A DNA stretch of 35,345 bases from IMG/VR virus record IMGVR_UViG_3300005663_001968, positions 1 to 35,345 of that record, one strand, 5' to 3'. Each line of letters starts with the position of its first letter. Position 1 is the stretch's first letter. The notes beneath the pieces are model-generated. The model was given only the letters and a program-made list of their open reading frames with translations. It made no database searches and was not told the DNA's origin. The DNA comes from a virus. A program made the position numbers and the translations under genes. Shown here one piece after another: positions 15,916 to 31,595 of this stretch.

Positions 15916-16011
15916 ATGAAAGTCAAAAGCATGAAAAAAGCATTCCCGAATGCATTTGCTGACGGGATAGAGGGCATCGGGGTGTGCCCACGGAGGTTAA
16001 GCGTAGCATGA
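15916..16011 (+). CDS. Mini-ORF encoding the last 25 residues of TnpB
   Basis: This 31-codon ORF (MKVKSMKKAFPN...CPRRLSVA) matches the C-terminus of the TnpB at 30112-31314 from the residues AFPN to the stop. Within the shared coding part three of five base changes are synonymous. It opens with an ATG that TnpB lacks here and ends at a TGA overlapping the ATG at 16008. It is either a decayed tnpB tail or a leader that couples translation to the next gene. Confidence 0.45.
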   Translation: MKVKSMKKAFPNAFADGIEGIGVCPRRLSVA

Positions 16012-16072
16012 CTACAGATACCTCTGAGAGTTTTGAAGAACGGCCCGGTTCAACACCTAGTTTTTCGGAACG
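15931..16072 (+). mobile_element. Orphan IS605-type right end, tnpB-less remnant
   Basis: These 142 bases align without gaps to 31234-31375, the tnpB 3' end plus right end, with 131 identical positions by my count. Identity stops abruptly on both sides: before about 15931, and after TTTTTCGGAACG ending at 16072. No tnpB body or left end is nearby, so this is either a deletion remnant or a mobilised, retained right end. The terminal GTTC/GAAC pairing seen in the intact copy is kept. Confidence 0.85.
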
Positions 16073-16092
16073 CACCCTGGTACATAGCAACC
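15938..16092 (+). ncRNA. Predicted omega-type guide RNA (orphan copy)
   Basis: In IS605-family elements the guide RNA scaffold is transcribed from the tnpB 3' end through the right end, and the guide is the flanking sequence just beyond it. By that rule the scaffold here is about 15938-16072 and the guide starts at 16073 with CACCCTGGTACATAGC. The guide differs from the one at the intact element. Expression, processing and pairing with TnpB are inferred, not shown. Confidence 0.5.
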
Positions 16093-16451
16093 AAGAACGA
16101 AAGAAGAAACGACCAGGTGAATCTCGAATCATCTACGTGGATGGAGATCGAGAACGCTACCTATGGGGGATAATCATCGAAGAAAACGATCGTGGCATCA
16201 TCATCTCTCGGAACGATGGCAATCACGAGATCAAATGGGACAATATCCAACGCGTGGACCCCCCGCAGAATTCTCACGATCTATCCCTTGTTGTCTTTAC
16301 AGATGGAAATCGGGACCGGGGCCTATGGGGGACAATCATCTCTCGGAACGATTGGGGCATCGTGCTGAAACACAAAAACGGCACCTACCGTTTCGCGTGG
16401 TCAAAGATCAAGAGGATAGATGAGCCATCGACGCCAACCGTCCAATCCTAG
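16008..16451 (+). CDS. Two-repeat beta-barrel protein with transposon-derived N-terminus
   Basis: The first 22 residues of this 147-residue protein (MTTDTSESFEERPGSTPSFSER) are encoded by the orphan right end, which also supplies GGAGG 11 bases before the ATG. After a basic linker come two similar blocks of about 45 residues: IIYVDGDRERYLWGIIIEENDRGIII...IKWDNIQRVDPP and LVVFTDGNRDRGLWGTIISRNDWGIVL...FAWSKIKRIDEP. Each resembles a small Sm/SH3-like barrel, so this is an internal duplication. The function is unknown. The native start before the insertion cannot be seen. Confidence 0.65.
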   Translation: MTTDTSESFEERPGSTPSFSERTLVHSNQERKKKRPGESRIIYVDGDRERYLWGIIIEENDRGIIISRNDGNHEIKWDNIQRVDPPQNSHDLSLVVFTDGNRDRGLWGTIISRNDWGIVLKHKNGTYRFAWSKIKRIDEPSTPTVQS

Positions 16452-22291: not shown

Positions 22292-25200
22292 GTGGGATGG
22301 ATAATTGCCAGTGATGCACTCGAAGCGACCGCTCGCTTGATGGGGCTCCCCAGGGCATGGGGATCCACCATCCAACACCGCGGCACAGACGAAGGTGTTT
22401 TCAAGCGGCGCAAAGCGGGCGGAGAGCGCCACGGCATCCTTACTGCTGAAGCGTATGGAGTACTCGTCAACAAAGGCTGGCCGATCCAGATCAGTATCAC
22501 CAACTACGATGGCAACAACTACACCGATTTCCAACGGTTTGCTATCTACGACTTCGATTCGGACCAGCCCGATCTCTGCAAGATCCCACTGGCCATGGTC
22601 TGCGAGTTTCAAGACTCATCTAATGTCCATTACCTCAACACCGACAGCGGCGTCAAAGGATATCATAACTGGGTCCCGTTCGACGCCTCGATCCATCAAG
22701 ATGACGTCAGGAAGTACCAGAACTGGGTTTTCGCCTCACTAGCCAAACAATACACCACAGAGGAAAATGGTGTCATCACCGGCTTTATCCAGCTCGACGA
22801 GAATAGTTGGTACTGGATCCCACCAGAACACCCATGGAACCCTCAGACCAACATCAAAGAACACCCCCATGTCCATATCGAAACCCTGATCACCCGCGGC
22901 TTTGGATCGATGATCAAGGGCATCTTCTCACCACACCAGAAGGATCGAACCCGCATGTCCCTGCCAATGACGCTGGCACAGATTCAGAAGCATGATCGAT
23001 CCCAGCCTATCACCGATGCCGATATCAAACGTGGTGAGAACCTCGTTCGTAGATCAAAACGAAACCACTACAAACACATCCTTGAACTGATCGGCTCCCG
23101 GGAAAGAGACGAGCCAAAATCAAAGGAACCACGCATATTCCAATGGGCTCGAGAAGGACGAACTAAGTTCACGATCCCAGCGCCAGAAGAAGACATCACC
23201 AAACTCGAGCTCCTCACCAACCGGTCTCCAGAACAGGAACAGGAACTACAAACAGCCATTCAACTCCACAACACCCTGCAATATACCCTCAGTGAAATGG
23301 TAGGCAGAATCCTCAATGTCCCATGCCTGACCCAATGCTTCGAGATCTCCCTCTCCAGACCGGGGGTCTACTGGGAACGAGTCAATCTGGTTATCGCATT
23401 GGCCAATATGGGCTACAGCCGCGAACAGATCGCCTACTTATTCCGGCACGAAGTCAATGACGCCGTCGACAATGCCAATAGGGGCATTACCGAATACCAG
23501 GTAGATTACTGGTTCCGCCGAAAATACAGAGGCCGATGTGAATACTTCCAGGAACTCAAATCCAAACACCACTGTTGTGATCTTCCGTGTGGTAGGCGAT
23601 CCCCGGATCAACTGGACCCAGATCCAGACTTTCCGCAACTAACCCGGGCCGCCGACTTCTCCCTCGCATACGACAGATCTGAAGAAATCCTGGACATGGA
23701 CGCCAAATTCATTCTGGCAGAAAAGGGCACGCGCTCGGGTTTTACAACGGCTCTTCCCATCACGGCGAAGGGTAAGGGCCTCTCGATATTGTTCTCCGTA
23801 CCCAGGACATCCATCAGTGAGCGGACTTTTCCAGAAGCAATGCGGGTAGGCCGCCGCTACAAGGGCCAAACCATGAAGGGCTTTGTTTGGTCCAGTAATA
23901 TGAAAACATGTTTGATTCGGGCTCAACAGGCCGCCGACCATGAGAAACGCACCGGCCTCCCCCTGGTTCCATCCATCCCCGTCCCCCGGGAAGACTGCGA
24001 CAAATGCCACTACGCACTGAAACACGGCGGCCGTAAATGCCTGCCAATAGTGGACCAACCCCTGTTTCAATCAGATCTGGATCCCTCGGCTTGCATGCAA
24101 GAAACTTTCAGAGATGAGAAAGACGACTTTGATGTTGGATTCATCACCTACTCCAAACTCTACTCGCTGATGAATACCCCCACCGACGACGCCCTCGAGA
24201 TGAGGGAATACATCTCATCGTTTGATGTCATCGTACTGGACGAGATCAGCCAGTTTATTGACGTCTCCCCGCTCGAACTGATCCTACGGACCGTACCGAA
24301 AGAAGACCAACCAACTTACAATTTCTTCGACGCCCTGGACAGGGAGATGCGCCAACTACTCCACCAATTCCCATCTAACTACATGGTAGAGGAAATAGTA
24401 GAGTACATCGACGACTTCACCGTCACCTTCCAGGACCTCAAATGGTACGACCACGGTGATCCAGTAGACAACTACCTCAACGACTCCGAACGGGAAAAAC
24501 TGCGCCAGAAAACCAACCCCTACCTCATGCTGTTATACGGCTACGAGCTAGATACTGGACATAAGGTCAGCCGTATCTACAACGTGCTGGCACTGCTCAC
24601 CGAGGAACGATGGCGAGTCTCCAAGATCGAGAGCGGCAACTATGAAGAACAGATTAGTTTCATCCTACCAACCAAGCACATGGAGATGATGGCATGGCTA
24701 CAAAGTCTGCCCGGGAAAATCATCGTCACAGACGCAACGCTTCCATACACCAATATGGAAAAGATCCTCCCCGGCATCGTCAGATACCACTTTGGAGATC
24801 CGAACAATACCGCGGCAACACAGATTGTCATTGCCGACAGCCGCCACATCAGTCAAAGCAGGATCTTCAAGGACATGGACCGACTCCGCAATTATGTCGA
24901 GGATGTTCTCAGATTCCACGGCAACAACAACGTCATGTTCGTTCTGCCCAATACTCTATCTTGGAAACGATTCAAGCAGGAATTTCCCCACATCCCACCC
25001 GAGAATGTCACCTACCAGAGATCCAACGAAACCATTGGCGTGGCCAACAACCTACGAGCAATGGTCGTCGTCGGCGGCACCTACTCCCCACAAGAAGCAT
25101 TCGACTGGGTAGCCCTGGACATGGTGGATGCCAACCCAGTAGATTACTTTCCCAACAATCCAAACCCAACCGATGCAGAAAAGCACGATTACGCCATCAA

Positions 25201-29666: not shown

Positions 29667-30074
29667 ATGAAAACAGAAACAAAGTATGGCGTCGAACAAT
29701 TCGACGGATGGAAAGCGATCGCCCAGGTAATTCACACATTCAGTGTCAACGGCGATCTCGAGACCAAGATAGAAGGAGTAGCCTACGAGTATGAAGAAGA
29801 GAAATTTTCGACAGAACTGGCAGAGATCGAAGAGAAAAGAGACCAACCCCTATACGACAGAGCTCTCGGAGCCCTGATCGGAAAAGTAGACGGGAGCCCC
29901 GATCTCAATAGGTGGAAGTTCGACGTCAAGATCGATGGGGACAATATCTCCAACTGGAACGGCAGCGCTCCCACCGCCGCGCTGGCCGTCCAGATGTCCA
30001 ACATTGTCATCGAGTGGATCAAAGAAAAACAAGAGGGCCAGACAGAGGACACTGAAGAAAACACCGAAGCATAA
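29667..30074 (+). CDS. Hypothetical acidic protein
   Basis: This is a 135-residue protein with a GGAAGGTAATGAAAG site. It is mixed alpha/beta, with a helix AALAVQMSNIVIEWIKEKQ near the end and a very acidic tail (EGQTEDTEENTEA). No family is recognised. It ends 37 bases before the TnpB start, so the left end of the IS-type element must be in or just after its 3' end. Confidence 0.55.
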   Translation: MKTETKYGVEQFDGWKAIAQVIHTFSVNGDLETKIEGVAYEYEEEKFSTELAEIEEKRDQPLYDRALGALIGKVDGSPDLNRWKFDVKIDGDNISNWNGSAPTAALAVQMSNIVIEWIKEKQEGQTEDTEENTEA

Positions 30075-31375
30075 TCCTACGGGCGTACTAGGTATTTGTA
30101 AGAGTGATATTGTGGTAACCACGTTGAACCGGATCGAATCGTTCTACATTAAGCCGGACCCGGACCTGTCCCATTGGTGCCACCTGGCGAAGAATCTCTA
30201 CAATGAAGCCAACTACATCGTCAGGCAGGAGCTCTTCCATAACGGCGTATGGCTCCGGTATTACGATGTATGGTTGGCACTGAAAGAGACGAGCGATAAT
30301 TACGACGAGTTGCCGACTGGTACAGCTCAGCAGATTCTTCGCTTGATCGACAGTGCATGGAAATCCTTCTTTGCTTCTATCAAGGAGTGGAAAAAGCATC
30401 CAGAGAAGTTCTTAGGAAGACCCAAACTACCAAAATACAAGCCGAAGGATGGCGAGTTCGTCCTCCCGTTTACCAATCAACAGGTTCGTCATAAAGACGG
30501 ACTAATCAAACTACCGAGAAAGTTCGACGTTGAAGTGAAAACCAGACTGAATGAAGGAACGAACATTAGAGGAGCGCGTATCGTACCCCAGGGAGTAGGC
30601 TATCGTCTGGAAGTGATCTATGATAAGGAAGTACCAGAGCCACCACTAGAATCAACCCGAATAGCGGGCCTGGACCTTGGTGTAAACAACCTTGTAACTA
30701 TCGGGACCAACATCGGTATTGAGCCGATTGTGGTCAATGGTGGGGTTGTCAAATCATGGAACCAGTTCTATAACAAGAAGAGGGCACAACTGAGATCCGT
30801 ACTGGACCGGCAAGGAGGAAAGAGCAGTAGACGGCTCAACCGCCTCTATCTGAAGCGGAAGCGGAAGATGCAAGACTATTTCCACAAAACCAGTCGGAGA
30901 ATCATCGACTGGTGCGTCCAGCATAACATCGACACAATTGTCATCGGCCACAACGACGGTTGGAAACAGAACGTTCGACTTGGCAGACGGAACAACCAAA
31001 ACTTTGTCGGTATCCCGTTTGGGATGCTGATCAGCCAACTGGAATACAAGGCGGAAGACGTCGGTATCCGGATAGTGCTCCAGAACGAAGCGCATACCAG
31101 TAAGTGTTCGTTTCTCGACAACGAACCGGTCTGTCACCAGAAGCAGTATGCTGGCCAACGGGTCAAGCGTGGGCTGTTCCGTGCCAGTGATGGTCGTCTA
31201 ATCAACGCTGACCTACAAGCCGCCTACAATATCGTGAAGAAAGCATTCCCGAACGCATTTACTGACGGGATAGAGGGCATTGGGGTGTGCCCACGGAGGT
31301 TAAGCGTAGCATGACTACAGATACCTCTGAGAGTTCTGAAGAACAATCCGGTTCAACACCCGGTTTTTCGGAACG
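30075..31375 (+). mobile_element. IS605/IS1341-type element carrying only tnpB
   Basis: The element comprises tnpB and a right end that is repeated in the orphan copy at 15931-16072. That repeat fixes the right boundary at about 31375 (TTTTTCGGAACG). The left boundary is not defined, because only one full copy is present; I set it after the previous stop. No TnpA transposase is in the window, so mobility would need TnpA in trans. Confidence 0.7.
30112..31314 (+). CDS. tnpB: TnpB, RNA-guided nuclease family, with rearranged RuvC site
   Basis: This is a 400-residue protein from the GTG at 30112 (a TTG at 30124 is possible). The frame is open further upstream only because it overlaps the previous gene. 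RuvC I is AGLDLGVNNLVTIG (D188). RuvC III is INADLQAAYNI (D367). The usual RuvC II Glu position (IVIED) reads TIVIGHNDGW with Gly279. A candidate substitute Glu, E326, lies in QNEAHTSKCSF, before RuvC III. The usual CxxC...CxxC zinc finger is reduced to two isolated Cys. Such rearranged catalytic sites are reported in some TnpB branches. By homology it cuts DNA using an RNA from the element's right end. The last codons overlap the next ATG. Confidence 0.85.
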   Translation: MVTTLNRIESFYIKPDPDLSHWCHLAKNLYNEANYIVRQELFHNGVWLRYYDVWLALKETSDNYDELPTGTAQQILRLIDSAWKSFFASIKEWKKHPEKFLGRPKLPKYKPKDGEFVLPFTNQQVRHKDGLIKLPRKFDVEVKTRLNEGTNIRGARIVPQGVGYRLEVIYDKEVPEPPLESTRIAGLDLGVNNLVTIGTNIGIEPIVVNGGVVKSWNQFYNKKRAQLRSVLDRQGGKSSRRLNRLYLKRKRKMQDYFHKTSRRIIDWCVQHNIDTIVIGHNDGWKQNVRLGRRNNQNFVGIPFGMLISQLEYKAEDVGIRIVLQNEAHTSKCSFLDNEPVCHQKQYAGQRVKRGLFRASDGRLINADLQAAYNIVKKAFPNAFTDGIEGIGVCPRRLSVA

Positions 31376-31395
31376 ATCCGGGGCCCGGCTTGAGA
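31241..31395 (+). ncRNA. Predicted omega-type guide RNA of the TnpB element
   Basis: By the IS605 rule the scaffold covers the last tnpB codons and the right end (to about 31375), and the guide begins at 31376 with ATCCGGGGCCCGGCTT. GAAC (31341-31344) can pair with GTTC (31351-31354), or that GTTC with the terminal GAAC (31371-31374). Both options are conserved in the orphan copy. The 5' boundary is approximate, and expression is inferred. Confidence 0.55.
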
Positions 31396-31595
31396 GCGAG
31401 TCGGACGCCGACCAGTTCATCAAGTGGTTTCTGCAGATCCACCCCACTGCTCCAAACGATCTTCAACGACACATACTGGACTTCTTGGAATCCATGAATT
31501 TCTACGAATGGGAGACAGCCTGGATCCGGGACTTCTACCATCTCGACAGAAAGGACCAATTGGAGTTCCTCCAACAAATCAAGGTCTACCTATGA
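31311..31595 (+). CDS. Hypothetical protein with transposon-derived N-terminus
   Basis: The ATG overlaps the tnpB stop (ATGA), with GGAGG 11 bases upstream, both inside the IS right end. The first 22 of 94 residues (MTTDTSESSEEQSGSTPGFSER) come from the element. The rest (ADQFIKWFLQIHPTAPNDLQRHILDFLESMNFYEWETAWIRDFYHL) is helical and comes from flanking DNA in the same frame. It is probably a host gene whose 5' end was replaced by the insertion. The function is unknown. Confidence 0.6.
   Translation: MTTDTSESSEEQSGSTPGFSERSGARLESESDADQFIKWFLQIHPTAPNDLQRHILDFLESMNFYEWETAWIRDFYHLDRKDQLEFLQQIKVYL

What the first reader, a model, noticed from the sequence alone, without database searches (positions are those of the whole stretch)
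15992..16451. The orphan right end fuses in the same way to a different gene
The same GGAGG-11 bases-ATG unit and the same reading frame feed a different 147-residue protein at 16008. Two unrelated downstream genes joined in the same frame is suggestive, although the chance of agreement at a second site is about one in three. Retention of the right end alone may reflect its use as a translation start cassette.
Basis: inference. Interest (0 to 1): 0.6.

Follow-up and report, generated by a model that had tools for sequence, protein, structure and literature searches.

The report
Orphan transposon end before a gene
A leftover end of a jumping gene sits in a virus genome and reads straight into the next gene; its apparent ribosome-binding site is really part of a folded guide RNA, though such ends do sometimes seem to take over as the start of a neighbouring gene.

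Summary
Window 15924-16072 is a 91% copy of the last 149 nt of the tnpB element at 30112-31375. GGAGG (15992-15996), 11 bases and ATG (16008) open a 147-residue frame, and the full copy does the same at 31311. The unit is the 3' coding tail of an RNA-guided nuclease (TnpB) plus its predicted guide-RNA (omegaRNA) scaffold. GGAGG is the Arg-Arg codons of TnpB and one arm of an RNA stem that relatives keep with other letters (GAAGT). The ATG overlaps the TnpB stop (ATGA).

Most frames close soon (76 of 118 within 20 codons), so this is not a general start cassette. Yet long open frames favour the right end's ATG frame (15 versus 2 for its fair competitor, p=0.002). In six copies a gene of 138-503 codons has no other nearby start; in one (HemL) the junction falls at the native start codon. 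So right ends occasionally become start sites, probably through insertion at start codons and survival of the in-frame cases. In the window this is plausible but unproven: two copies, no close relatives, no empty site.

The parts
15924..16072 (+). orphan tnpB right end (solo copy of TnpB 3' coding tail, omegaRNA scaffold and element end)
   Evidence: 91% direct repeat of 31227-31375; fold like the full copy
15916..16011 (+). 31-codon remnant ORF MKVKSM-KKAFPNAFADGIEGIGVCPRRLSVA; stop TGA overlaps ATG 16008; the first codons resemble the tnpB start of relatives (ATGAAAGTNAARAG), so possibly an internally deleted tnpB
   Evidence: sequence; pattern matched once in the window, chance 0.14; relatives' start. 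The pattern was chosen after the fact, so this is weak.
15991..15997 (+). 5' arm of predicted omegaRNA stem 3 (CGGAGGT), contains the GGAGG; pairs with 16020-16026 (ACCTCTG)
16030..16071 (+). terminal hairpin of the right end; putative element end at 16071 or 16072
   Evidence: last base shared by both copies is 16072
16008..16451 (+). 147-residue ORF: 21 codons from the right end, then an unrelated gene body with a tandem repeat of about 54 codons
   Evidence: (D3)
30112..31314 (+). tnpB gene (RNA-guided nuclease family), without a tnpA partner
   Evidence: Pfam OrfB_IS605 and Cas12f1-like_TNB; NCBIfam guided_TnpB; no Y1 or IS607 transposase in the record
31227..31375 (+). right end of the full copy
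31311..31595 (+). 94-residue ORF opened by the ATG that overlaps the tnpB stop in the full copy

Best explanation
The feature is a solo right end of a TnpB transposable element. Its sequence is set by TnpB's C-terminal codons and by an omegaRNA scaffold; the GGAGG is one arm of a scaffold stem. The ATG overlaps the TnpB stop codon. The element (or its remnant) landed at or near the 5' end of a viral gene, and that gene is now most likely translated from the right end's ATG, by stop-start coupling from the short remnant ORF (orphan) or from tnpB (full copy). Use as a start is a by-product kept by selection on the downstream gene. It is not the function of the right end. Shown: homology, predicted fold and pairing, frames, codon bias, and frame bias in relatives. 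Inferred: translation from this ATG, coupling, and the order of events.
For: TnpB identity. Both copies fold alike with z -2.6 and -2.1. Stem-3 pairing is kept in 235 of 273 cells, once the 37 relatives are put in a register one column off the window rows, with GC/AT and GC/TA exchanges at two pairs; GGAGG itself occurs in 2 of 39 rows. TnpB stop TGA 31312-31314 and 16009-16011 overlap the ATG. Gene bodies are coding-like in that frame, the prefix is not. Among 118 right ends of Thermoplasmatota relatives: ATG frame open for 60 or more codons 15, other frames 5 and 2. Start-less ORFs of 100 or more codons: 7 in the ATG frame (6 with the ATG intact: L107, L111, L127, L150, L183, L201), 0 and 1 in the others. 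L111 is HemL-like, and its four close orthologues (L330-L333) start exactly at the junction. Pfam places L107, L111, L127 and L150 in known enzymes with the domain starting near the junction.
Against: No close relative of the window or empty allele was found, so the native 5' ends are unknown. The exact element end (16071 or 16072) is uncertain, and with it the phase. The ATG is no commoner among frame-A-open copies (9 of 13) than among the rest (56 of 86). At the 30-codon threshold the A versus C difference is not significant (29 versus 16, p=0.07). The aligner's own register gave only 57.9% of cells paired for stem 3. L200 is in frame and start-less but lacks the ATG.
Confidence: 0.55

Rival explanations
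1. Plain remnant: the orphan is transposon debris, the downstream gene is 5'-truncated and dead or uses an unrecognised start, and frame agreement in two copies is chance.
For: Chance of agreement is 1/3. In 76 of 118 relatives the ATG frame closes within 20 codons. The prefix shows no coding signal and 5 of 6 differences are non-synonymous.
Against: 125 and 72 codons of coding-like open frame directly follow the junctions; relatives show start-less genes in the ATG frame.
Confidence: 0.27
2. Solo guide RNA: the orphan is kept because it still makes an omegaRNA that the intact TnpB at 30112-31314 can load, with the guide read from about 16072 onward.
For: The 149 nt retained are about the scaffold length; reRNA of ISDra2 is about 150 nt, from the 3' end of tnpB plus the right end, with about 16 nt of flank as guide (PMC8612924, passages). 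Folds are alike. The difference at 16033 keeps a pair (C-G to U-G).
Against: Differences at 16058 and 16059 weaken the small apical stem. The 16-nt guide matches nothing else in the window. No expression data.
Confidence: 0.2
3. Dedicated start cassette: the right end is selected to carry a ribosome site and ATG.
For: Frame bias in relatives. L021 has an ATG 23 nt before the same AACCT end as the Thermoplasmatota copies (read).
Against: GGAGG not conserved. The loop ATG of relatives is less conserved (92/82/74%) than the GTTAAC stem columns on either side (79-100%, mostly 89 or more). 1 of 72 viral loci opens 40 or more codons.
Confidence: 0.08

Closest known systems
TnpB reRNA / omegaRNA of IS200/IS605 and IS607 elements (ISDra2; PMC8612924)
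   Same: RNA scaffold overlapping the 3' end of tnpB and the right end, guide from the flank; stem-loops predicted here
   Different: No RNA measured here; no tnpA in the record; a second, tnpB-less copy
Archaeal sense-overlapping RNAs of tnpB genes (sotRNAs, Rfam RF02656/RF02657; PMC12558985, passages)
   Same: Position within the tnpB 3' end in archaea
   Different: No Rfam family reached its gathering score in the window
IS607-family elements of Thermoplasmatota (L106-L223, L224-L243)
   Same: TnpB about 48-54% identical for the best copies; same scaffold core; tnpB stop next to an ATG; solo right ends common
   Different: They end in AACCT, carry an IS607 TnpA in intact copies (NF033518, one copy tested), and mostly have GAAGT instead of GGAGG
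IStrons (IS plus group I intron; PMC4227781, abstract in search listing)
   Same: A transposon that can be harmless to the gene it enters
   Different: IStrons splice out of RNA; here the gene would be restarted

Membership tests
TnpB (OrfB, RNA-guided nuclease) | TnpB/OrfB profile match | tested here: met
   PF01385 E 1.9e-23, PF07282 4.6e-10; NF040570 219.8 bits, cut-off 100
TnpB (OrfB, RNA-guided nuclease) | RuvC catalytic acids intact | tested here: inconclusive
   D188, E326 and D367 invariant in 10 TnpBs; the recalled usual Glu position reads GHN, so which Glu acts is inferred
TnpB omegaRNA / reRNA | structured RNA spanning the tnpB 3' end and right end | tested here: met
   Predicted fold; helix 2 paired in 95.3% of cells with changes on both sides at 4 pairs; helix 3 in 235/273 cells after re-registering the relatives
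TnpB omegaRNA / reRNA | binds TnpB and guides cleavage | not testable with these tools
   none
IS607 family | serine-recombinase TnpA | tested here: not met
   No NF033518 match in the window record; the record may be a fragment
IS200/IS605 family | Y1 TnpA | tested here: not met
   No PF01797 match in the window record; stand-alone tnpB elements exist (PMC8612924, passage), so the gene is filed only as TnpB
Translation start cassette | conserved ribosome site and ATG with open frame into flanks | tested here: not met
   GGAGG in 2 of 39 rows; ATG frame closed within 20 codons in 76 of 118

The most novel reading that the evidence does not exclude
IS607-like TnpB elements of Thermoplasmatota prefer a target (T before the left end, then not-C and a purine after the right end) that includes the AT|G of start codons, and their right end carries an ATG exactly 23 nt (2 mod 3) before the end, so an insertion that splits a start codon re-supplies a start in the correct frame: a start-codon-restoring transposon end that makes insertions survivable.
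Probability: 0.25. Interest if true: 0.65.

Novelty: new member of a known kind. Interest (0 to 1): 0.4.

Why it matters
It shows that an apparent Shine-Dalgarno plus start unit can be an omegaRNA stem and TnpB codons, a caution for gene calling next to TnpB elements. In relatives it gives testable cases (HemL-like, HerA-like, peptidase M24) in which a transposon end has apparently become the start site of a host gene, a way, besides splicing and excision, for an insertion to be tolerated.

Tried and rejected
A scan for relatives of the 16110-16451 protein found none, and phage protein searches gave no or chance matches. Four viral contigs share the topoisomerase-like gene but no synteny or tnpB. 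Rfam: nothing. A structure prediction of the 147-residue protein had pLDDT 40 and was not used. Guide searches in the window gave, besides the guides themselves, only 3-mismatch matches at 23594 and 27429 for the full copy, which I regard as chance although no shuffle gave three matches. I considered that the window phase equals the AT|G phase of relatives: this holds only if the element ends at 16072/31375; the hairpin ends one base earlier, and then the phase differs, so I do not use it. Literature searches for a transposon end acting as a start found nothing relevant (titles and abstract starts only).

Rows dropped: of 122 BLAST matches, 2 that stopped short of the right-end terminus and 2 duplicates were dropped, leaving 118. 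One search uses the 99 of 118 ending AACCT. The structure alignment uses 37 of the 62 relatives with a readable scaffold plus the 2 window copies. The phylum searches covered 389 genomes drawn from a larger group and the full right-end search 20 genomes; 4 of the 122 places, which do not reach the right-end terminus, were not fetched.

Full report
WHAT IS THERE. The window is a 35,345-bp linear virus record. A single long direct repeat, 149 nt and 91% identical, lies at 15924-16072 and 31227-31375. The second copy is the 3' end of a tnpB gene (30112-31314). The repeat begins in TnpB's last codons, passes the stop codon and ends with a hairpin. GGAGG (15992-15996) is followed by 11 nt and ATG at 16008; the same unit is at 31295-31313. 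The ATG overlaps the tnpB stop as ATGA. ORF 16008-16451 is 147 codons, as reported. The two gene bodies behind the repeats are unrelated.

WHAT THE UNIT IS. GGAGG is codons CGG-AGG of TnpB (...CPRRLSVA). Both copies fold into the same predicted structure: three main stems and a terminal hairpin (-45.8 and -44.7 kcal/mol; z -2.6 and -2.1). GGAGG forms part of stem 3 (15991-15997 with 16020-16026). I aligned the scaffold with 37 Thermoplasmatota copies. Stem 2 is paired in 95.3% of cells, with both-side changes at four pairs. For stem 3 the automatic alignment gave 57.9%; shifting the relatives' 3' arm by one column gives 235 of 273 cells, with GC in the window opposed to AT or TA in relatives at two pairs, against 58-158 of 273 for the four other registers tried. 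That register was chosen by fit, so it leans towards the structure. The letters GGAGG occur only in the two window rows of 39. This is what is expected of a TnpB reRNA, which overlaps the tnpB 3' end and right end and takes its guide from the flank (PMC8612924, passages; PMC10278001, passages).

IS IT A TRANSLATION UNIT IN THE WINDOW? Codon bias says that the bodies after the repeats are coding-like in the ATG frame, and that the prefix is not (one control gene, 16420, scores low, so the measure is rough). Five of six differences in the prefix are non-synonymous. One of them (16033) keeps an RNA pair; two (16058, 16059) weaken a small apical stem. The spacing of 11 is longer than the 7, 9 and 7 of the exact GGAGG sites among the 35 gene starts examined. 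A short ORF, 15916-16011, ends on the ATG and could give stop-start coupling; its first codons resemble the tnpB start of relatives, weakly suggesting an internally deleted tnpB.

Close relatives of the window were not found. TnpBs at about 48-54% identity occur in Thermoplasmatota, where one intact copy tested has an IS607 TnpA. I collected 118 distinct right ends from 20 genomes. They end in AACCT in 99 of 118 and usually have an ATG 23 nt before the end (78 of 118). Open 60 or more codons beyond the end: A (ATG frame) 15, B 5, C 2; 100 or more: 11, 2, 2. B is not a fair comparison, since it is closed at its first codon in 59 of 118 by the target bases. A versus C: p=0.0023 at 60, 0.0225 at 100, 0.07 at 30. 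Frame A closes within 20 codons in 76 of 118. Copies are related and several thresholds were looked at, so these p-values are guides.

GENES RESTARTED. Long ORFs (100 or more codons) with no start codon in the first 15 codons after the junction: A 7, B 0, C 1. Six of the seven have the ATG. Pfam: L107 Pyr_redox_2, L111 Aminotran_3, L127 HAS-barrel and HerA, L150 Peptidase_M24, L183 a match below the curated cut-off, L201 none; the C case L142 none. For the HemL-like gene (L111; the name HemL is recalled), four orthologues (L330-L333) have ATG two codons before the aligned SEKL-like segment, exactly where the junction base G would complete AT|G. For the M24 peptidase, orthologue starts vary by a few codons; for the oxidoreductase only one distant homologue was seen. 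In 18 elements with both ends read, the base before the left end is T in 18 of 18, and the last two are AT in 11 of 18; the two bases after the right end are mostly GA, TA, AG and AA. In L234 the joined flanks read CAG-AT|G-AAC, so an ATG can be split without loss. ATG is not enriched in frame-A-open copies (9 of 13 versus 56 of 86), and the loop is less conserved than the stems. I therefore read the bias as insertion at or near starts plus survival of in-frame cases. In 72 distinct viral tnpB loci, 30 have an ATG near the stop and one opens 41 codons. L258 reads in frame into a gene whose name (NlpC/P60) I recall only.

VERDICT. The right end is a TnpB omegaRNA and element end; the ribosome site is not conserved. 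Its use as a start for the 16008 gene is plausible and has apparent precedents in relatives, but is not shown to explain its retention.

Noticed in passing
L106-L223 (Thermoplasmatota): Solo and internally deleted right ends of the IS607-like element are common (16 right-end matches in each of two genomes), including short left-end-to-right-end derivatives of about 295-700 nt.
   Followed up: partly
window 16140-16199 and 16302-16361: Tandem repeat with a 162-nt period inside the 147-residue protein (75% DNA identity); short Pfam match to DUF2982.
   Followed up: no
window 30112-31314: The viral TnpB lacks Glu at the recalled usual RuvC-II place (reads VIGHN) but keeps an invariant Glu 326, as its archaeal relatives do.
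   Followed up: partly
L258 (viral contig), after tnpB: Right end ending ATGGATAACCT reads in frame into a downstream gene, another candidate start capture.
   Followed up: no
window 30070-30112: ATAATCC just upstream of tnpB resembles the left end of some relatives (ATAATCCG) and supplies the stop of the upstream gene 29667; the element's left end may lie here.
   Followed up: no
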